Shown here: piece by piece, positions 3,589 through 54,784 of the stretch | How the letters are laid out: each line of letters starts with the position of its first letter | How positions within the stretch are numbered: position 1 is the first letter of the stretch | Assembly: GCA_012521995.1 (NCBI GenBank) | Contig: JAAYLH010000080.1 | Span: forward strand, 1 to 56,953 | Reading direction: 5' to 3' | DNA: 56,953 bases | DNA from: Bacteroidales bacterium | Lineage (GTDB): Bacteria; Bacteroidota; Bacteroidia; Bacteroidales; UBA7960 | The notes under the pieces: model-generated | What the model saw: only the letters and a program-made list of their open reading frames with translations | Database searches by the model: none | Told to the model about the DNA's origin: nothing | Program-made: the position numbers and the translations under genes

Positions 3589-4884
3589 TCAGGCAGATGG
3601 ACTTTCCATTTGTTCACGCTTCCTGCGCAATAATCCGCCTAGGGTGTCAATCAGTCCAAAATAACTCAGCAGAATCAGGATATGAATGTAATGGTGTAAG
3701 AAGATCATGGAAACATACACCAGTGCCAGGAGCAGGAAATAGCTCCAACGCTCAAGCAGAAAAACCCAAATTCGCTGCAGAAGAGTCTTGCCTTCAGGCA
3801 GGTCCATATGGTGAAAGAAAATATGGTAGGTACAAAAGAAAAACACTACAAAAAGCAGGAGCAAATATCCCCTTGAGATAATATTATCGCCCTGACGAAG
3901 GGATTCAAGGATATTGATCAGCACAATAGGTCCCGCAGCAAATGCCGAGATGGTTTGATGCAAATCATAAACCCCTTCAATATCTCCGATAACCACCACC
4001 TGCCCTTCTCCCAGAAAATAATCCTCGAAAAGGCCCAGATGAATGTAGCTAAGGCCTTCCACAAAATCAGACTGCACGTACCTGAATTCAGGGATAACTG
4101 TATTTATCACCCAGCGCCCATCCAGGGTATAATAGGGAATGAACCACCATTTTTTCCTTTCCATGGATTTTCCTGAGATGTTTTCATAGGCCAGTAATGG
4201 CACTTGTTTATAATGCTCATACATGATGAAACTGTATTTCAGGAATTGCTCATTGAGATAAGAGGATCGATATTGAGAAAGTCCTGACTTACCCTCAAAC
4301 ACAGGGGTCACCAGGGCTTTTTCCTGGTCGTTGTAAAAGGCAGGCATGGCAAATTTGCCTTTTGCAGAAAGGCTTCTTATGACCTCCTGCAACAGGCTGT
4401 CGGCTTGTGAGTCGGCTGAGGGAAGTTCAAAAAACACATCGCAGATCACAAAGGCGATGCGGTCTGAATTCACATCCAGGATCCTGAGTTTCTCCGCAAG
4501 AAGCCTGCGGTCTGTTATTACGGTATTGATGGTATTGTCATTGTCCAGTGGCAGCAGGGCATTGTTTTTAGAGGTATTGATTACGAGGTAACGGTCTGAA
4601 ACATTGTCCGGAGGTGGTTTATTTAAGATCACATCATTTACAAAAGCCCGCATGTTCATATGGTCGTTCATGAAGCCAAATCCGTCCATTACATTCACAT
4701 ATCCAAGCCAAAGCATCACCAGGGCAATCAGCCAGATGGAATGCACCGCTGAGAGGATGGCATGCTTCCCCTTCATACCGGGAAATAAAAAGAAAATGAA
4801 CCTATTGAGAGAAATTTTCAGTTTACCCCAAAATTGAGGTAGCCTTGTTTTCTTGCTTTTCCCTGGATGTGCCTTTTGAGCCAT
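3589..4884 (-). CDS. CHASE2-domain membrane sensor without an output domain
   Basis: Predicted membrane protein with an extracytoplasmic CHASE2 sensory domain. A transmembrane helix spans about residues 41-62, followed by a long soluble part to about 330. Its end carries the CHASE2-like stretch VVVIGDIEGVYDLHQTISAF then PIVLINILESLRQGD, equivalent to the conserved 'G-A-T-x-x-D-x-x-x-T-P ... G-v-x-i-H-A-n' region that precedes the C-terminal helices. Three or so hydrophobic segments follow (about 335-357 and two between 380 and 420). It ends in a short charged tail, with no kinase, cyclase or CHAT output domain. It lies 20 bp downstream of the CHAT protein gene, so it is probably the last gene of a three-gene operon. 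The CHASE2 call is by motif reading and moderately sure. Confidence 0.68.
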   Translation of the reverse strand: MAQKAHPGKSKKTRLPQFWGKLKISLNRFIFFLFPGMKGKHAILSAVHSIWLIALVMLWLGYVNVMDGFGFMNDHMNMRAFVNDVILNKPPPDNVSDRYLVINTSKNNALLPLDNDNTINTVITDRRLLAEKLRILDVNSDRIAFVICDVFFELPSADSQADSLLQEVIRSLSAKGKFAMPAFYNDQEKALVTPVFEGKSGLSQYRSSYLNEQFLKYSFIMYEHYKQVPLLAYENISGKSMERKKWWFIPYYTLDGRWVINTVIPEFRYVQSDFVEGLSYIHLGLFEDYFLGEGQVVVIGDIEGVYDLHQTISAFAAGPIVLINILESLRQGDNIISRGYLLLLFVVFFFCTYHIFFHHMDLPEGKTLLQRIWVFLLERWSYFLLLALVYVSMIFLHHYIHILILLSYFGLIDTLGGLLRRKREQMESPSA

Positions 4885-4904
4885 ATAGAAGAAAAAATGG
4901 AGGT

Positions 4905-7900
4905 TTAACGAATCAGTTCAAATCCTGCCCAAAGACTGGGCTGATCTGGATACTGGCTTTTCATATCCTGCCTGGCTTTAAAAAAAGCCCCTTCAATGGA
5001 ATGACTATTTACCAGGTAGCCATAAAAAAGTGTCATGAGCTCCATGGTCTCAAAGTCGGGCACTTCCCAAAGGGAAACGATAAGATTCTCCACACCAGCC
5101 ATAAACAAGGCCCGCTGAAGACCAAACACCCCTTCATTTCCCCTGATGTCGCCCAGCCCGGTTTCACAGGCGGAGAGCACCACCAGTCGGGTTCCATCCA
5201 AATTCATGTTCGACAGTTCATAGGCTGTCAGGATACCATCTTCAATCCCTGCTGGGGGTACTCCCCTTGCCCAGGTCTGGTTGGCCCCCGAGAACAGCAG
5301 TCCACTGCGTAGCAAGGGATGATCAGCCATGCTAAAGACCTCATTGGTACGGGCATCCAACGTTCCGCGATGGAGGTTATCATGATCCTTTGGTGGGAAA
5401 CTAAAGCCATGGCTGGCAACGTGGATTATTGAAGGGGACCTTCCCTCAAGGGCCTTAAACGACTCTTCGGTGGCTTGCTTCCCTGTGAAAGCATGAGAGC
5501 GAAGGTTCTGCCCCGCCAATAGATTGCTGATCTGTTCCACCTCGGCGAGGGTGCCAGGAAGGTAACTCCAGTCCGCTCCCCGCAAACTCCTGTTTCCACC
5601 CGGGATGGTATTTTCAGCCATGGTTTCGGGATTGTAGTTCCTCGCCAGGTGGGCCAGGGTGGTTGCATCTGTATTGTAATCAATGCCCCCGAAGAAAAAC
5701 CCAGTTTCTCCATTAAAGTCCGGGGGTTGGGCCATTAAATTACGCGTTGATGCCAGGTTGTGAAGCTCAAAACGGTCGGAAAGGACTTGTCCACCTGGCA
5801 AGTGAATGGCAGAAAAGGAAAAACGATGCAACAACCCAGTAGGAGAAAAATAAATTACCTTAACTCCTTCCAACAGAGGCAGCATGGGTTCAATGATCAG
5901 ATTGAAAAGACTTTCATTGCCCGGGGCGTACAATTGATCGGGATGCTGCAGTGCCAAGGGATTCAATTCATTGCCCACCGTCAGAAATACCATTCGTGGG
6001 TATTCATATTCAGGCCGCAACAACAGACCGCAATAGAAAATGGAATCTGTTTCTCTGACCCCATCATAATAGTTAAAACTAAGAAACTCCAGGGCTGCCT
6101 CATTGGGTCTCAAGGCATTTCTTACCTGAAGAAAGGCATCCTCTTCAGCCAGCAGCGTATTGATAGGTGTACCCAGACTTATCAGGCGCTGCTTCATTTG
6201 TTTCTGAATGTCATCCAGCTCCTGCTCAAGACCTGCAGGGTCCTGGGTGCGCTGTGGGGCCGGCATTGCATAGATGGCCTCCATTTCTGCCCGCACCTGC
6301 CGCTGACGTTCATTAAGCCGTTGTAACTCATTATCGTTACTATCCTCAACTGCTTCCTGCATTTTTTTTGAAGACTGCAAAAGCAAACCCTTTAAAAAAA
6401 GTTGATTGTCATAAGCCCTGCCTCCTAGCTCAGGAAACGCACCTGTCAACCTGTAATACATTGAATGATATGCATCAAAGTACCTGGTAATATTATTGTT
6501 TATGTAGGCCTCCATTTCCCTTTCTGACCAAATCAGGAGGTTATGGTCAACTAGTTCTATTATTTCCTGGTTACTTTCAATTGCCCTTGTTTTCCCCAGG
6601 ATCAGATTGCCTGCACCCTCAAGATACACGGATTGATTGTGTTTTTTGGTAAGAAAATCAGGGTGGTGTCCATCACCAATGGAAACCTGGGCATTCATGG
6701 CTTTCTCATTCCACTGAAGGGCGCTTTCAAAATCTCCAGTTTTGGCATATACCATTGAAAGGTTACCCATAACGTTTGCATACTCCCTCAAATGGGTATA
6801 ACCTGAATCTTCAAAAACCTCAATGGCTTCCAAATAGTTTACCTCTGCTTTTTCAAGTTCACCCTTGTACCAATAAATTGTTGCCAGGGTGCCCATGCCC
6901 GTGGCATAATCAGGCTCATGTATACCGCCCCTGGGTGCTGATACCTGGCTCCTTAAAAGGTAGTCCTCAGCTAAGTCATAATCGCCTTCAAACATGGCTA
7001 CTCCACCCAGAATACTTAAGCCCGAGGCATAAACATCAAGGTCGGTTTTCCCGATCTGTTCAAGCAGGGTCATGCCTTCTGCCACATACGATCTGGCCTT
7101 TCCAAGGTTATACATTTTGGTATAAACCATGGCAAGGTTTATCAGCGCAGAGCCGATCTCTTCTTCTTTGCCCGAACGTGAGTCTTTCATGGCCTCCAGG
7201 TATTCTAAAAAATACCTTTCTGCGGTATCATATTCACCCACCATTGAATACAATGACCCCAGGACATTGACCATGTCGAGGTATGCTCCCTTTTGTTTTC
7301 CCAGGAAAAGAAGTGAATAGCCTCTGGGCATATTTTGCATCGCATCTTTCAGACGCTCGGCAGCAGGAATCATTTTATTCCACTCAAGCGTTTCTGTATA
7401 GTATTGAAGAAGCTGACTATCAATATTCAATTTATCAGAAAAACTTTCAATCGCATTATTCTCAAGCAATTCAACATACAATGGCTCGCCTTCCTTTTTA
7501 TACCCTTTATTCCAAAATTGATCGGCGAAAATTTTTATTATCTCAAAATATTCCTTTGATGCCGCGCCATGCTTTAGCTTAACTAAAGGCACACTTTTAA
7601 GATAGCTTTTCAACGCTTCCTGCTCACGGCCTTCATTCCAGTAAGCATCACCCAAATGGATATATATTGTTGCCATTTGCTCGTGCTCTTCGCCTAGTTC
7701 ATTCTTTACCAGGCCTGCAAAGGTTTCAAGGTAAGGGATTGCCCGCATATAATCATTTTGCTCTTTATACTTTTCATAAATACGGGTTAGTATGGTTGAA
7801 AAACCACTTCGTAAAGGATCCGGCAAAGCCGAATAAACACTGAGTGCCTTTGAGTAATATTCTTCAGCCTGGCCAGGCTTGTTAAAATCGTGATAAAGCA

Positions 7901-8315
7901 AACCCAGGTAATAATACATATACCCTGCACGGTTTGTATTCCCGATTTCTTCAAGTATACTGGTAGCTGCCAAATAGAATTTTTCGGTATTCACAAAATC
8001 CTTGAGGGTTTCCAGATAATTGTCGCCTATCCGCTCCAGGCAGACGGAGGTAGCAAGTGAAACTTCGAGGTTAATGTCCAGGGCCTGGTTCAGATAATCA
8101 ACAATCCTTTGTGCAGGCCATTGCTTATTGAATTGTGTAATATTTTGCGTTTGAACCCAATGCGTAAGGGGCTGGCCATTCTTGTAATACATGGCATTAT
8201 TGATGGTACCCTCACCATCATAGGCCACCCTCATCCCATCGCTTTTGCCCTGGGCTGATGCCATAAGGGGAAGGAGCAAAACAAAAAGTAAGACTGAAAC
8301 GATACTTTTTCTCAT
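4905..8315 (-). CDS. TPR-CHAT caspase-like protease, exported
   Basis: Large predicted exported protein (1136 aa). The ATG at 8315 gives a clean signal peptide (about residues 1-21, ending ASAQ) and leaves 10 bp to the upstream gene; an in-frame start at 8399 would add 28 residues and overlap that gene, so it is rejected. Residues 60-610 are tetratricopeptide repeats (for example ATIYIHLGDAYWNEGREQEA, YYLGLLYHDFNKPGQAEEYY). About 680-760 is a coiled-coil-like helical region. The C-terminal CHAT domain, a caspase-fold peptidase, has the dyad His969 in IIHVASHG and Cys1050 in VVLSACETGLG, and ends in the usual WAGFELIR. Both catalytic residues are present, so it should be active. Substrates are unknown. 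Neighbours are a FecR-like protein and a CHASE2 sensor. Confidence 0.9.
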   Translation of the reverse strand: MRKSIVSVLLFVLLLPLMASAQGKSDGMRVAYDGEGTINNAMYYKNGQPLTHWVQTQNITQFNKQWPAQRIVDYLNQALDINLEVSLATSVCLERIGDNYLETLKDFVNTEKFYLAATSILEEIGNTNRAGYMYYYLGLLYHDFNKPGQAEEYYSKALSVYSALPDPLRSGFSTILTRIYEKYKEQNDYMRAIPYLETFAGLVKNELGEEHEQMATIYIHLGDAYWNEGREQEALKSYLKSVPLVKLKHGAASKEYFEIIKIFADQFWNKGYKKEGEPLYVELLENNAIESFSDKLNIDSQLLQYYTETLEWNKMIPAAERLKDAMQNMPRGYSLLFLGKQKGAYLDMVNVLGSLYSMVGEYDTAERYFLEYLEAMKDSRSGKEEEIGSALINLAMVYTKMYNLGKARSYVAEGMTLLEQIGKTDLDVYASGLSILGGVAMFEGDYDLAEDYLLRSQVSAPRGGIHEPDYATGMGTLATIYWYKGELEKAEVNYLEAIEVFEDSGYTHLREYANVMGNLSMVYAKTGDFESALQWNEKAMNAQVSIGDGHHPDFLTKKHNQSVYLEGAGNLILGKTRAIESNQEIIELVDHNLLIWSEREMEAYINNNITRYFDAYHSMYYRLTGAFPELGGRAYDNQLFLKGLLLQSSKKMQEAVEDSNDNELQRLNERQRQVRAEMEAIYAMPAPQRTQDPAGLEQELDDIQKQMKQRLISLGTPINTLLAEEDAFLQVRNALRPNEAALEFLSFNYYDGVRETDSIFYCGLLLRPEYEYPRMVFLTVGNELNPLALQHPDQLYAPGNESLFNLIIEPMLPLLEGVKVIYFSPTGLLHRFSFSAIHLPGGQVLSDRFELHNLASTRNLMAQPPDFNGETGFFFGGIDYNTDATTLAHLARNYNPETMAENTIPGGNRSLRGADWSYLPGTLAEVEQISNLLAGQNLRSHAFTGKQATEESFKALEGRSPSIIHVASHGFSFPPKDHDNLHRGTLDARTNEVFSMADHPLLRSGLLFSGANQTWARGVPPAGIEDGILTAYELSNMNLDGTRLVVLSACETGLGDIRGNEGVFGLQRALFMAGVENLIVSLWEVPDFETMELMTLFYGYLVNSHSIEGAFFKARQDMKSQYPDQPSLWAGFELIR

Positions 8316-8325
8316 ACCCCGCTGT

Positions 8326-9195
8326 TTATTGCCCTTCAAAGGCTTGATCAATCTTATCCAGGAGCCAGTTGCTGGCTTCCTCTGAGGAATAAATCCCAAA
8401 GGTTCTTTGAATCTGGCGCTCGCTAACCATCCTGGGGACTAACAAATGGAATATCGCTTCCTTATCCATCACCATTCCATCAAATTGGGCAGAGGCAAAA
8501 AAGGAAAGGATATCATCCAGAAAATAAAGTTGGAATGGTGCAATTTCATCTTCCAGTTTAGTCTCTTGGCCTGTATCACTATTCACCAGGAATAATTTCA
8601 GGTCTTTAGTTTCAAATGAATTCTGTAAACCTTCCCCATCAGACCCCCGCCCACCAAACAAATGCCTGCGGGTAAGAAAAAGAGAATCATTATGCCCTAT
8701 GACGCTTTCAAAAAGCGCTCCATCAAAATCGTACCGGGCAACCAGTTGAACCGGTCCTGAAAATCGGTATTTATCCAACCCTGCGCACAGAACGGTGTCC
8801 TCAGTTAGGAGTACCAGGGCTGACTCACCGGGATTGAACGCCCTCTGAAATTCAAAGTCACTGCGAATAAATTTTACTCCACGGGTAGCCAGCATCAGGT
8901 CACGTCCGGGATTGGCAGCCTGGGCCGGGATTACAACGATCTTTCGCCTGCTGGCATCCAGTAATTGAAGGAAGTCCTGGCCGCTCCCAAAGTCCATCCG
9001 GGCAAATTCTCCCCGCATATTTAATGCATCGCTCAGATCTGAAAGCTCGAGCTTGTCACCACGCTTTAATTCCTGCCCATTATAAGTCACCTTTCCCCTG
9101 ACCATCACCACCTCATAGGGAAACTGGGCAAAACCATTGACTGCACTGTTAAGCATTATGAACTGGAAAACCAACAAAAAGAATCCCCTTTTCAT
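8326..9195 (-). CDS. Secreted FecR-like protein, first gene of the CHAT cassette
   Basis: Not firmly recognised. It has a signal peptide (residues 1-23, cleaved near GFAQ). Residues 25-90 read like a FecR-type domain: VVMVRGKVTYNGQELKRGDKL followed by a region of short beta strands, as in many proteins where FecR sits beside CHAT or CHASE2 proteins. The remaining 200 aa have no motif I recognise. The ATG at 9195 is preferred to GTG at 9198. The gene is 10 bp upstream of the CHAT gene, so co-expression is likely. Inference: an extracytoplasmic partner or regulator of the protease. No catalytic residues are apparent. Confidence 0.6.
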   Translation of the reverse strand: MKRGFFLLVFQFIMLNSAVNGFAQFPYEVVMVRGKVTYNGQELKRGDKLELSDLSDALNMRGEFARMDFGSGQDFLQLLDASRRKIVVIPAQAANPGRDLMLATRGVKFIRSDFEFQRAFNPGESALVLLTEDTVLCAGLDKYRFSGPVQLVARYDFDGALFESVIGHNDSLFLTRRHLFGGRGSDGEGLQNSFETKDLKLFLVNSDTGQETKLEDEIAPFQLYFLDDILSFFASAQFDGMVMDKEAIFHLLVPRMVSERQIQRTFGIYSSEEASNWLLDKIDQAFEGQ

Positions 9196-9250
9196 CACGA
9201 TTGTAATTTTGGATCACCTTTAAAAAGCAACTATTGCGCGTCGAACAAAC

Positions 9251-9258
9251 CAAATGTA
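9251..9258 (-). promoter_or_regulatory. Candidate -7 element for the FecR-CHAT-CHASE2 operon
   Basis: On the minus strand TACATTTG matches TAnnTTTG exactly, 56 bp before the ATG at 9195. A good -33 TTTG is not seen at the usual distance (TTTC lies about 22 bp upstream). Weak to moderate. Confidence 0.4.
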
Positions 9259-9333: not shown

Positions 9334-9357
9334 TAAAAAAAGGGCCAGAAAGGCCCC
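9334..9357 (-). terminator. Intrinsic terminator of recA
   Basis: On the minus strand GGGCC, loop TTTCT, GGCCC, then seven T. It lies 26 bp past the recA stop and separates recA from the CHAT operon. Confidence 0.85.
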
Positions 9358-9382
9358 TTCAAAGACATCTCAGAAAAGAACC

Positions 9383-51543: not shown

Positions 51544-52578
51544 ATGATCAAAACCATTGATATACAAGAATTTAATTCCTTAAGGGCCGATTACCCCCTA
51601 CTGGATGTGCGTTCCCCTTCCGAATATGCCCAGGGACATATCCCCGGGGCAGTATGCCTCCCCCTCTTCGATGATGAGGAACGCAAGGTGGTAGGCACTC
51701 TTTATAAGAAATCGGGCCGCGAAGCAGCCATCTTAGAGGGTCTAGATTTCGCAGGGAAGAAGCTCAGGGCCTTCGTGAAGCAGGCCAGGAAAGCCATCCC
51801 CGGCAAAAAATTGCTGATGCACTGCTGGCGCGGGGGCATGCGCTCTGAAAGCATGGCATGGCTGCTGAACCTGGCAGGCTTTGACGTTTGCCTTCTGAAA
51901 GGAGGTTACAAGGCTTACCGCAGGCACGTCCTCAGCCTCTGGGAAAAGCCGGCCAACATTTTGATCCTTTCCGGGAAAACTGGAACCGGGAAGACGGAGA
52001 TCCTGAAATATATGCAGGAGCTGGGCCAGCAGGTCATCGACCTGGAAGGGATAGCCCATCACAAGGGCTCGGCCTTTGGTGCCATCGGAGAAAGTCCCCA
52101 GCCTACAAGCGAGCAGTTTGAAAACGACCTTGCCGACCAGTGGATGCTCCTTGACCCCTCCAGACCCGTATGGCTTGAAGACGAAAGCCATTCCATAGGA
52201 TCGGTATTCATCCCACACACCCTATACCAGCAAATGAACCTGGCCAGGGTGGCACGGCTCGATATGCCCAAGGACTTGCGGGTAAAACGCCTTATCATTG
52301 ATTATGCCGGCTTCCCTAAAGAGCTCCTGCTCCACTCTGTGGGGAAGATCCAGAAACGCCTGGGCGGACAAAACACCAAGGCTGCCACTGAGGCCATTGA
52401 ACGGGATGACTTTGCAACCGCCATTGCCATCGTACTCGACTATTACGACAAGGCCTACACCTACGACCTGGGCAAGCGAAAGCCCGAACAGTTCATCCAT
52501 TTGGAGACCCAGACCGAATTGGCGGAAGAGAATGCCCGCCTGGTGCTTGAGCAGATAAAACACCTGAAAGATGAATAA
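51544..52578 (+). CDS. mnmH: tRNA 2-selenouridine(34) synthase
   Basis: Uses selenophosphate to exchange sulfur of mnm5s2U34 for selenium, via a geranylated intermediate, in tRNAs for Lys, Glu and Gln. N-terminal rhodanese domain with the catalytic Cys94 in LMHCWRGGMRSESMAW. Then a P-loop ATPase part with LSGKTGTGKTEIL (Walker A about 144-151). Length 344 aa versus 364 in E. coli. The stop overlaps the NifS-SelD fusion start by 8 bp, so the selenium donor enzyme is made together with it. Confidence 0.96.
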   Translation: MIKTIDIQEFNSLRADYPLLDVRSPSEYAQGHIPGAVCLPLFDDEERKVVGTLYKKSGREAAILEGLDFAGKKLRAFVKQARKAIPGKKLLMHCWRGGMRSESMAWLLNLAGFDVCLLKGGYKAYRRHVLSLWEKPANILILSGKTGTGKTEILKYMQELGQQVIDLEGIAHHKGSAFGAIGESPQPTSEQFENDLADQWMLLDPSRPVWLEDESHSIGSVFIPHTLYQQMNLARVARLDMPKDLRVKRLIIDYAGFPKELLLHSVGKIQKRLGGQNTKAATEAIERDDFATAIAIVLDYYDKAYTYDLGKRKPEQFIHLETQTELAEENARLVLEQIKHLKDE

Positions 52579-54784
52579 GGACAAGCCCATTTACCTTGAC
52601 CATAACGCCACCACGCCCATCGACCCCGAGGTGGCACGGGCAATGCAGCCCTTCCTGGAGCAGTATTTCGGAAACCCCTCGAGCGTCCACCTCTATGGGA
52701 TTCAAACAAAGAAGGCGGTGGAAGAGGCCCGCAGGCAAATGGCCGCCCTGCTGAACTGCAATCCCGATGAGGTCGTCTTCACCAGCGGGGGCACCGAGGC
52801 CAACAACTACGCCATCAAGGGGGCCGCCTTCCAGCTCCGCGACAGGGGCAACCACATCATCACCACCACCATCGAACACCCTGCCGTCACCGAGGTCTGC
52901 CAGTTCCTGGAGAGCCAGGGCTTCCGCATCACCTATGTCGCAGTGGATGAAACCGGCCTGGTGAACCCAGCCGATATTGAAAAGGCCATTACGCCCGGGA
53001 CGATCCTTATCAGCGTGATGCACGCCAACAATGAAGTGGGCACCATTCAGCCCATTAAAGCCATCGGACAGATCACCCGCCGCCGCGGCATCCTCTTCCA
53101 TTGCGATGCCGCACAATCGGTGGGAAAGATCGATACGGACATTAAGAAAATGGGGGTCGACCTGCTCTCTGTGGCAGGCCATAAACTTTATGCTCCCAAA
53201 GGCATCGGGGCCCTTTACATCAAGCGGGGCGTTCAGTTGCAGAAACTGATGCACGGGGCCAACCACGAGCAGAACCTGAGGGCCGGCACCGAGAACGTGC
53301 TTGAGATCGTGGGCCTGGGAAAAGCGGCAGAAATTGCCAAACGGGACATTGAAGCCAATGCCCGCCAGATGCGCCTCAGCCGTGACCTGCTCTATGACCG
53401 CCTGAAGGAGGCTTTACCAGGCATCCGCCTGAACGGGCACCCCACACAAAGGCTGCCCAACACCCTCAGCATTGGCTTCCCGAATACGGAGGCCAATACC
53501 CTGCTCGATGAGCTGCAGGGCATCGCCGCTTCTGCCGGGGCCGCCTGCCACGCTGACCAGGTGGACGTATCCACAGTGCTTACAGCCATGAAGGTCCCCC
53601 TGCCATTTGCCATGGGCACCATCCGCTTCTCCACAGGCAAGCACAGCAGCCCGGAGGAGATGGAACAGGCAGCAGCCATCATCATTGAAGCCGTGAAGCG
53701 AATGAGGCCAGGGGAAAGCCTGGAAGAAGTCCAGATCCTGGAAACCGGCCCCATACACCTCACCCACTTCACCCACGGCCTGGGCTGCGCCTGCAAGATC
53801 AGGCCACAGTACCTGGAAAAAGTGCTGCAGGATATGCCTAAGGTAATGGACCCAAAAGTCCTGGTGGGCACCAATACTTCTGACGACGCAGCTGTCTACA
53901 AGATCAGCGAGGAGACTGCCATTGTCCAAACAGTCGACTTCTTCACCCCCATCGTGGATGACCCCTATGCCTTTGGCGCCATAGCCGCAGCAAATGCCCT
54001 GAGTGATATTTATGCAATGGGCGCCAGACCTTTGTTCGCCCTCAATATAGTAGGCTTCCCCAGCAACCGCCTGCCTATACAGGTACTGAAAGACATCCTG
54101 AAAGGAGCTTCCGATAAAGCCACAGAAGCCGGTATTCCTATACTGGGCGGACATACTGTAGAGGATAACGAGCCCAAGTTCGGGATGGTGGTCACCGGGG
54201 ATGTCCATCCCGCAAAAGTGCTTACAAATGCAGGTGCCAAACCCGGGGATGTGCTGATCCTGACCAAGCCCATTGGCACAGGAATTATAGCCACAGCGGT
54301 GAAGCGAGGGCTCGCCGAGGATGCTGTAGCCCACGACGCCCGCGAAGTGATGGCTGCCCTGAATGCCGACGCTGCCGGAGTGATGGAAGCCTTCCCTGTG
54401 AATGCCTGTACCGACATCACAGGATTTGGCTTGCTGGGACACCTGAAGGAAATGGTGCAGGGTTCCAGGGTGAATGCCTTCGTTTATGCCGATAAGGTTC
54501 CCCTTATCAAGGGCACCCATGAACTGGCCATGGCCGGAGCCATCCCGGGAGGCACGCGAAACAACCTGGAATTCACAAGACCCATGGTAGACTGGCCTGA
54601 TGAGATGCCTGAGTTCTTGAAACTGATCCTCTGCGATGCCCAGACCTCGGGGGGATTATTGGTGGCCCTGCCTGAGATTCACGCACAAGCATTCATCAAT
54701 CAATTCAAATCTGAACATCCCTATCGATGGGTAATCATCGGAAAAATCATGGAAAACGGTGAAGGCAGGATCAAGGTTATTTAA
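52571..54784 (+). CDS. selD: Fusion of cysteine desulfurase and selenide, water dikinase (NifS-SelD)
   Basis: One 737-aa protein with two enzymes. Residues 1-380 are a NifS/IscS-type cysteine desulfurase (selenocysteine lyase-like): DHNATTPIDPE, PLP Lys205 in SVAGHKLYAPKG, loop Cys326 in SAGAACHADQ. Residues 395-737 are selenophosphate synthetase with HGLGCACKI (Cys406, Cys408, Lys409, matching Cys17, Cys19 and Lys20 of E. coli SelD; the catalytic position is Cys, not selenocysteine) and GTNTSDDAAVY for ATP/Mg binding. The fused order would channel selenium from selenocysteine or selenide carriers straight to ATP-dependent activation. The overlap with mnmH and the absence of selA/selB in view fit use for tRNA selenouridine. 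NifS-SelD fusions are known in other bacteria. Confidence 0.95.
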   Translation: MNKDKPIYLDHNATTPIDPEVARAMQPFLEQYFGNPSSVHLYGIQTKKAVEEARRQMAALLNCNPDEVVFTSGGTEANNYAIKGAAFQLRDRGNHIITTTIEHPAVTEVCQFLESQGFRITYVAVDETGLVNPADIEKAITPGTILISVMHANNEVGTIQPIKAIGQITRRRGILFHCDAAQSVGKIDTDIKKMGVDLLSVAGHKLYAPKGIGALYIKRGVQLQKLMHGANHEQNLRAGTENVLEIVGLGKAAEIAKRDIEANARQMRLSRDLLYDRLKEALPGIRLNGHPTQRLPNTLSIGFPNTEANTLLDELQGIAASAGAACHADQVDVSTVLTAMKVPLPFAMGTIRFSTGKHSSPEEMEQAAAIIIEAVKRMRPGESLEEVQILETGPIHLTHFTHGLGCACKIRPQYLEKVLQDMPKVMDPKVLVGTNTSDDAAVYKISEETAIVQTVDFFTPIVDDPYAFGAIAAANALSDIYAMGARPLFALNIVGFPSNRLPIQVLKDILKGASDKATEAGIPILGGHTVEDNEPKFGMVVTGDVHPAKVLTNAGAKPGDVLILTKPIGTGIIATAVKRGLAEDAVAHDAREVMAALNADAAGVMEAFPVNACTDITGFGLLGHLKEMVQGSRVNAFVYADKVPLIKGTHELAMAGAIPGGTRNNLEFTRPMVDWPDEMPEFLKLILCDAQTSGGLLVALPEIHAQAFINQFKSEHPYRWVIIGKIMENGEGRIKVI

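What the first reader, a model, noticed from the sequence alone, without database searches (positions are those of the whole stretch)
3589..9258. Split FecR / TPR-CHAT / CHASE2 cassette
Three adjacent genes encode a FecR-like secreted protein, an exported TPR-CHAT protease with an intact His969/Cys1050 dyad, and a CHASE2 membrane protein lacking an output domain. In other bacteria CHASE2 and CHAT or FecR domains are often fused or neighbours. Here sensor, protease and regulator are separate and the protease has a signal peptide, so the caspase-like activity would be outside the cytoplasm. This could be an envelope stress or self/non-self protease system.
Basis: partly seen in the sequence, partly recalled or inferred. 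Interest (0 to 1): 0.65.

Follow-up and report, generated by a model that had tools for sequence, protein, structure and literature searches.

The report
Envelope receptor genes with swappable caspase-like proteases
In this uncultured Bacteroidota genome, three tightly packed genes encode a membrane receptor with no internal signalling part, a small exported partner and an exported caspase-like protease; related bacteria keep the receptor pair but swap the protease, which suggests a signalling route that stays in the cell envelope.

Summary
In detail: FecR-like, TPR-CHAT and CHASE2-like genes lie on the minus strand with 10 and 20 bp gaps, and the protease keeps His969/Cys1050. The FecR-like and CHASE2-like proteins have no significant Pfam match alone and are placed by family profiles.

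The CHAT trio is rare: five loci, one in another gene order, one with a broken CHASE2 gene. The constant core is an output-less CHASE2 gene with a FecR-like gene (37 of 45 loci read). The third gene changes: CHAT, C14 caspase (WD40, TPR or Sel1), subtilase or papain type. C14/CHAT genes lie within 10 kb of 11 of 37 such CHASE2 loci, 0.83 expected; in six loci found later, 4 of 6, 0.14 expected. CHASE2 genes in the window's well-supported clade sit with three peptidase types.

FecR-CHASE2 pairs with cytoplasmic outputs are published; an exported peptidase with an output-less pair I did not find in print. Export itself is not special: 31 of 36 unlinked C14/CHAT proteins also look exported. Mechanism is inferred; no support for defence.

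The parts
8326..9198 (-). FecR-like exported protein, 290 aa (GTG 9198 or ATG 9195)
   Evidence: ORF; no Pfam match better than E=0.078; homologues in L002, L003, L013 at 43-44% identity; profile link to CHASE2-linked small proteins that mostly match PF04773
8929..9120 (-). FecR-like N-terminal stretch (about residues 27-90)
   Evidence: hhalign columns; for the rest of the protein (about 200 aa) my Pfam scan gave no relative
4905..8315 (-). exported TPR-CHAT caspase-like protein, 1136 aa, ATG at 8315
   Evidence: PF12770 and TPR models; start and dyad numbering; alignment with 4 relatives
4911..5912 (-). CHAT domain; His969 codon 5411-5409, Cys1050 codon 5168-5166
   Evidence: H969 and C1050 invariant in 5 of 5
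3589..4884 (-). CHASE2-like membrane protein without output domain, 431 aa
   Evidence: 5 of 8 relatives match PF05226; profile-profile match; TM stretch at residues 42-60 and TM stretches at 339-418
9338..9360 (-). terminator-like hairpin after recA, upstream of the trio
   Evidence: 9 pairs, T-run; 7 such sites in the region against a mean of 7.9 in shuffles, so suggestive only

Best explanation
The trio is one version of an envelope-confined signalling module. A CHASE2 receptor in the inner membrane and a FecR-like periplasmic partner form the constant sensing pair. The third gene supplies an exported peptidase, here TPR-CHAT, that acts as the output in the periplasm, in place of the cyclase, kinase or phosphatase that CHASE2 proteins elsewhere carry on the cytoplasmic side. 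On a signal (probably an envelope ligand or a stress state) the pair would release or position the peptidase, which cuts envelope proteins. SHOWN by sequence: tight linkage, changing gene order, changing peptidase class on related CHASE2-FecR pairs, catalytic motifs kept in CHAT and in most linked C14 proteins by pattern, export-type N-termini, no cytoplasmic domain on CHASE2. INFERRED: physical complex, direction of control, signal, substrates, proteolytic activity.
For: Linkage: C14/CHAT genes within 10 kb of 11 of 37 output-less CHASE2 loci, 0.83 expected; 9 of 35 without the window and its orthologue G072, 0.79 expected. G339 adds one seen only by direct Pfam scan. Six further loci found later: 4 of 6, 0.138 expected, P=3.5e-06. 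Operon geometry in 16 of the 45 loci: 23 of 28 gaps lie between -7 and 52 bp with first-ATG starts, with -1 or -4 overlaps in L013, L037, L039, L049, L201 and L203. Swap: in one CHASE2 clade (99/98), L014 sits with a subtilase fragment at a contig edge, L199 with a WD40-C14 caspase, and W/L002/L013 with CHAT; fewest changes of partner on the tree 14. FecR-like genes: profiles A4/A5 found the CHASE2 neighbour in 9 loci whose proteins were not in the profiles (L043, L044, L087, L088; L199-L203). CHAT genes linked to CHASE2 form one clade apart from the unlinked ones tested (83/87 with L043). The window's genome has one CHAT place, this one, and no C14 place. Flanking genes differ: no recA or S9 match in L002, L003 or L013. 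Papers seen in passages treat FecR-CHASE2 clusters as one pathway or operon (PMC9239204, PMC5192318).
Against: In 25 of the 43 output-less CHASE2 loci other than L002/L003 I found no C14, CHAT, S8 or C1 gene (C14 and CHAT by profile in every locus, S8 and C1 only by Pfam on chosen neighbours; several loci end at contig edges), so the pair may work without a peptidase. Caspase-type genes also sit by CHASE2 proteins long enough to carry cytoplasmic outputs (5 of 34, 0.21 expected), so 'peptidase replaces the output domain' cannot be the whole story. Export is usual for these peptidases in the Bacteroidota genomes sampled. No complex model, no activity, no substrate. Both structure predictions were poor (pLDDT 51.9 and 49.6), and the PDB fold search with the first gave nothing at E<=0.001.
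Confidence: 0.5

Rival explanations
1. The peptidase acts upstream: it is an envelope protease that cuts or activates the FecR-like/CHASE2 receptor (a protease-activated receptor), and CHASE2 passes the signal on through another membrane partner, or through its own domain where it has one.
For: C14 genes also neighbour CHASE2 genes with outputs: L114/G774 is CHASE2-SpoIIE by Pfam; G613, G654, G657 and G767 are output-bearing by frame length only. This reading covers both kinds of locus.
Against: The window CHASE2 has no output domain and I saw no candidate downstream partner next to it.
Confidence: 0.22
2. Co-regulation only: envelope-related genes share an operon without a shared complex or pathway.
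For: Such peptidases are common in some of these genomes (103 C14 and 57 CHAT places in 35 genomes), and over half of the pairs read have none found nearby.
Against: Association in 14 family labels with shuffled order; one CHAT clade holds the linked ones.
Confidence: 0.18
3. The CHASE2/FecR-like pair is an inhibitor or immunity partner that protects the cell from its own exported protease, in a defence, competition or cell-death setting.
For: CHAT and caspase domains are effectors in proposed conflict systems (passages of PMC10907252 and PMC8195603); the C14 protein of L199 matches the PADLOC 'caspase' model (E=1.6e-09).
Against: The pair is common without a peptidase found; for the window trio PADLOC gives only a TPR match; neighbours look like housekeeping genes.
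Confidence: 0.07

Closest known systems
BiofilmReg operon of Burkholderia (PMC5192318, passages seen)
   Same: FecR-domain exported protein gene beside a CHASE2 membrane sensor gene, down to a two-gene form
   Different: its CHASE2 protein carries a histidine kinase output; no peptidase gene among the operon members in the passages
CHASE2 adenylate cyclase cluster of Campylobacterota (PMC9239204, passages seen)
   Same: CHASE2 + FecR-domain protein + TPR protein in one cluster, which the authors suggest is one pathway
   Different: cyclase output and a phosphodiesterase; no caspase fold mentioned in the passages
mtxA and its CHASE2-cyclase neighbour in magnetotactic bacteria (PMC4439547, one passage seen)
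   Same: mtxA is followed by a CHASE2 gene; MtxA_C (PF22121) matches 2 of 30 FecR-like neighbours, best E=0.0049
   Different: cyclase similarity on the CHASE2 protein; no protease mentioned in the passage
Metacaspase-CHASE2 fusion of Trichodesmium (PMC3501461 and PMC2853523, passages seen)
   Same: caspase-fold peptidase tied to CHASE2
   Different: one fused protein, with the metacaspase proposed to act in the cytoplasm
Craspase TPR-CHAT / Csx29 (PMC9729208, PMC10028731, search listing only)
   Same: TPR-CHAT architecture, caspase-like protease
   Different: partner of a CRISPR effector in the cytoplasm (recalled); here an export signal and no Cas gene seen by eye next to it

Membership tests
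CHAT peptidases (PF12770) | profile match over the cut-off | tested here: met
   184.8 bits against a cut-off of 24
CHAT peptidases (PF12770) | His and Cys dyad kept | tested here: met
   H969 and C1050 invariant in 5 of 5 aligned proteins
CHAT peptidases (PF12770) | proteolytic activity | not testable with these tools
   needs an assay
CHASE2 (PF05226) | Pfam match of the window protein itself | tested here: not met
   0 families at E<=1; no PF05226 match in G000
CHASE2 (PF05226) | membership through the family profile | tested here: met
   5 of 8 rows of A1 match PF05226; A1 versus A10 97.7%, E=2.5e-12
CHASE2 (PF05226) | one N-terminal TM helix, periplasmic domain, three C-terminal TM helices | tested here: met
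   hydropathy only: 42-60, 339-357, and a long 372-418 stretch that fits two helices; a weaker peak at 311-329 lies in the conserved CHASE2 end
FecR (PF04773) | Pfam match | tested here: not met
   none for the window protein; PF04773 is not among the families listed for 30 CHASE2-linked relatives (25 of 29 families shown)
FecR (PF04773) | distant profile relation | tested here: inconclusive
   A4 versus A9 80.8%, E=1.3e-05, alignment includes the signal peptide, 5 of 6 A9 rows PF04773-positive; A4 versus A5 92.7% over 54 columns
FecI/FecR/FecA sigma regulation | sigma factor and TonB receptor next to FecR | tested here: not met
   neighbours are CHAT and recA, by ORF reading
Published FecR-CHASE2 signalling pairs | FecR-like exported protein gene in one operon with a CHASE2 gene | tested here: met
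   in the window the CHAT gene lies between them; directly adjacent in many relatives
Published FecR-CHASE2 signalling pairs | cytoplasmic output domain on CHASE2 | tested here: not met
   431 aa, ends shortly after the last TM stretch
Craspase (type III-E CRISPR) | Cas7-11 gene beside TPR-CHAT | tested here: not met
   no such gene among the neighbours read by eye; CRISPR arrays were not searched for
Known anti-phage defence systems (PADLOC-DB) | profile match of the trio beyond repeats | tested here: not met
   only PDLC01169 TPR, E=1.3e-06, for the trio; the C14 protein of L199 matches the caspase model PDLC02987, E=1.6e-09, and a HEAT-ARM model

The most novel reading that the evidence does not exclude
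A class of bacterial receptors without a cytoplasmic output: CHASE2 plus a FecR-like partner signal wholly within the envelope through an exchangeable exported peptidase, most often of caspase fold, so that caspase-type proteolysis serves as an extracytoplasmic signalling output across Bacteroidota.
Probability: 0.33. Interest if true: 0.85.

Novelty: new variant of a known kind. Interest (0 to 1): 0.6.

Why it matters
Caspase-like proteins with export-type starts are common in the Bacteroidota genomes sampled here, and my searches found no paper that pairs exported ones with a receptor. The swap pattern names a receptor pair for a subset of them, says which proteins to test together, and makes the role of extracytoplasmic caspase-type proteases directly testable.

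Tried and rejected
Reading the signal peptide as special: rejected, since 31 of 36 unlinked C14/CHAT proteins have one too (home-made rule, not SignalP; 36 places that I picked, usually one or two per genome, out of 103 C14 and 57 CHAT). Reading the CHAT trio itself as widespread: rejected. The window FecR-like protein found 2 of 198 genomes of the order (window and G072) and the window CHASE2 protein 7 of 198. Reading the caspase link as exclusive to output-less CHASE2: rejected by 5 of 34 output-bearing loci. Defence system: no support for the trio. Fold evidence: two AlphaFold jobs with 3 sequences each were too poor to use; Foldseek on the first gave no match at E<=0.001; the second was not searched. 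PDB sequence searches gave only TPR-type matches among those shown for CHAT (60 of 99 shown), two weak rhodopsin matches at E=0.17 and 0.49 for CHASE2, and mainly TPR matches for the FecR-like group, with MtxA 4z29 at E=0.67.

Rows dropped before counts: L093 (G352:C14), G352:C11 and G738:C1 (weak or odd CHASE2 matches), L205 (G1085, not a CHASE2 protein by its frames), L198 (G1083, the same contig as L002). Tandem CHASE2 pairs in L081 and L094 were counted once. L002 and L003 came from a CHAT query and are left out of the enrichment tests. L204 and L200 end at contig edges. L040 has a C14-like frame by my own profile only (9.5e-20; Pfam showed no C14) and is not counted; L109 likewise has a C14 frame by my profile only and is not among the 5 of 34. 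The small protein of L041 meets profile A4 at E=0.0068 and is not counted as FecR-like. G339's adjacent C14 genes were missed by the genome search and found by Pfam. The validation expectation uses C14 counts only, and one of its six genomes (G135) had already been searched, without a match, by the single protein. 'Output-bearing' in the 34-locus control is by frame length; only L114 and L109 were checked by Pfam. The tree lacks L003, L086, L088, L200 and L204; 16 of 18 unlinked CHAT loci entered the CHAT tree.
Full report
WHAT IS THERE. The minus strand of the window carries, in transcription order, a FecR-like gene (9198 or 9195 to 8326), a TPR-CHAT gene (8315-4905) and a CHASE2-like gene (4884-3589), with gaps of 10 and 20 bp. 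A terminator-like hairpin lies at 9360-9338 between recA and the trio; the region holds no more such sites than shuffles do. Of the three proteins only CHAT, with its TPR repeats, is found by Pfam. The window genome is a draft of 3.26 Mb in 140 contigs, 97.8% complete; it has this one CHAT place and no C14 place.

NAMING THE OTHER TWO. Relatives found with the CHASE2 protein were aligned (A1, 8 rows). Five of eight match PF05226, and the profile aligns with A10, 16 output-less CHASE2 proteins, at 97.7%. The protein shows an N-terminal TM stretch, a large exported part, and TM stretches at the end, with no domain after them. The small protein is less sure. PF04773 is not among the families listed for 30 CHASE2-linked small proteins (25 of 29 families shown). 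PF04773-positive small proteins do occur one gene away from, or within about 3 kb of, output-bearing CHASE2 genes in the same phylum (G703, G705, G755, G677, G613), and profiles bridge the groups. I call it FecR-like.

HOW CONSERVED. With CHAT in the same order: L002, L003 (CHASE2 interrupted by a transposase-like frame) and G072/L013. G393/L043 has the order CHASE2-FecR-CHAT. Neither recA nor the S9-type neighbour has a match in L002, L003 or L013. The wider survey used 198 genomes of the order (protein), then profile A1 in 395 of the class (12 genomes hit), 395 of the phylum (4 hit) and 393 of the order (16 hit), and PF05226 in 247 of the phylum (91 hit; most frames 650-900 aa, room for output domains). 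Except for the last, the counts include the window's own genome; the samples overlap.

THE CORE PAIR. I read 45 output-less CHASE2 loci: the window, L002, L003, L013-L018, L035-L046 (L036 twice), L049, L050, L081-L092, L094-L096 and L199-L204. By eye and by my profiles, 37 of 45 have a FecR-like gene next to CHASE2 or in the same cluster (divergent in L046). 28 of these proteins were in the profiles; 9 were recognised without being in them. The eight without are L016, L035, L036 (first copy), L038, L039, L040, L041 (borderline, E=0.0068) and L204 (contig edge). In L038-L041 another kind of small exported protein seems to take the place, as far as I could read.

THE THIRD GENE CHANGES. CHAT: window, L002, L003, L013, L043. 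C14 caspase: L018 (WD40), L037 (four in tandem), L038, L039, L041 (convergent), L050 (two, with genes between), L083, L084 (two), L091 (WD40), L199 (WD40, plus another), L201 and L203 (Sel1), L202 (two). That is 18 of 45. Subtilase: L014, a fragment at a contig edge. Papain type: L087, and L083 besides its C14. In the remaining 25 of 45 I found none of these; C14 and CHAT were sought by profile in every locus, S8 and C1 only by Pfam on chosen neighbours, and some loci end at contig edges. By pattern, most of the 20 linked C14 frames keep GHG and DAC-type motifs (motifs recalled, with L199, L202 and L084 looked at again).

IS IT CHANCE. For 37 loci taken from CHASE2 searches, 11 have a C14 or CHAT place within 10 kb; 0.83 expected from each genome's own count and size, and no simulation of a million reached 11. 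Without the window and G072: 9 of 35, 0.79 expected. The second order search supplied six further loci; 4 of 6 have C14 within 10 kb, 0.138 expected, P=3.5e-06. The linked loci fall in 14 family labels (f1, f18, f22, f59, f72, f103, f120, f128, f159, f179, f181, f202, f214, f215). The model places genes uniformly and ignores operon structure, so the P values are rough.

TREES. On a CHASE2 tree of 40 of the 45, one clade (99/98) holds L014 with a subtilase, L199 with a WD40-caspase, and the three CHAT-linked proteins. Fourteen partner changes is the minimum; several branches are long. Linked CHAT domains form one clade (1 change; 83/87 with L043) among 21 rows, though L043's CHASE2 is in the other main CHASE2 group. 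Linked C14 domains are scattered (11 changes, 38 rows, quick tree). So this CHAT branch looks dedicated to the pair, while C14 partners were probably taken up several times.

CONTROLS THAT CUT AGAINST A SIMPLE STORY. Export-type N-termini are usual: unlinked C14 15 of 18 and CHAT 16 of 18; linked C14 8 of 9 (best frame of 9 of the 13 C14 loci) and CHAT 4 of 4. C14 also neighbours output-bearing CHASE2 in 5 of 34 loci, 0.21 expected; L114 has two C14 genes, a papain-type gene, a small gene and a CHASE2-SpoIIE gene. The peptidase could therefore lie upstream of the receptor instead of being its output.

LITERATURE. FecR-CHASE2 pairing is published with kinase or cyclase outputs (passages of PMC5192318 and PMC9239204), and mtxA is followed by a CHASE2-cyclase gene (one passage of PMC4439547). 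A CHASE2-metacaspase fusion is published (passages of PMC3501461 and PMC2853523); the section of PMC3501461 on metacaspase operons names neither FecR nor CHASE2. Passages of PMC8195603, PMC5498481, PMC13001267 and PMC10907252 were also seen. Searches for CHASE2 with CHAT and FecR, with caspase, for FecR domain with caspase domain and CHASE2, and for CHAT domain with periplasm and TPR listed no paper whose title, abstract start or passages describe exported peptidases with this pair. The library lacks most subscription journals, and listed papers were not read whole.

VERDICT. The best reading is an envelope signalling module whose constant part is CHASE2 plus a FecR-like protein and whose changing part is an exported peptidase. 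The mechanism is inferred.

Noticed in passing
window 52571-54784 (+), with 51544-52578 (+): One 737-aa frame holds a class-V aminotransferase (NifS-type) domain followed by AIR-synthase domains as in SelD, right after a gene that looks like SelU by eye: a likely selenium-metabolism fusion.
   Followed up: partly
L003, from about 5340: The CHASE2 gene of the Lentimicrobium MAG is interrupted by a transposase-like frame, while the FecR-like and CHAT frames are open.
   Followed up: partly
L037:9922-18500: Four tandem C14 caspase genes (the last cut by the stretch end) run into CHASE2 and FecR-like genes, the last junctions with 1-base overlaps.
   Followed up: partly
L083:2491-3867, L087:10666-12108, L114:6056-7483: Papain-type (C1) proteins with a DUF4384 match recur beside CHASE2 loci, in L083 and L114 together with C14 genes.
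   Followed up: partly
L082, L085, L086, L088, L089: In one family label (f204), FecR-like/CHASE2 pairs are next to genes that by eye look like SPFH/stomatin and, in some, NfeD proteins, so the pair may belong to membrane quality control there.
   Followed up: no
L044:6507-8003: A 499-aa protein with no Pfam match precedes a CHASE2/FecR-like pair in G393; its end looks transglutaminase-like by eye.
   Followed up: no
L038-L041: A second kind of small exported protein, not clearly FecR-like (L041 borderline at E=0.0068), sits next to CHASE2 in at least L039-L041, near C14 or C14-like genes.
   Followed up: no
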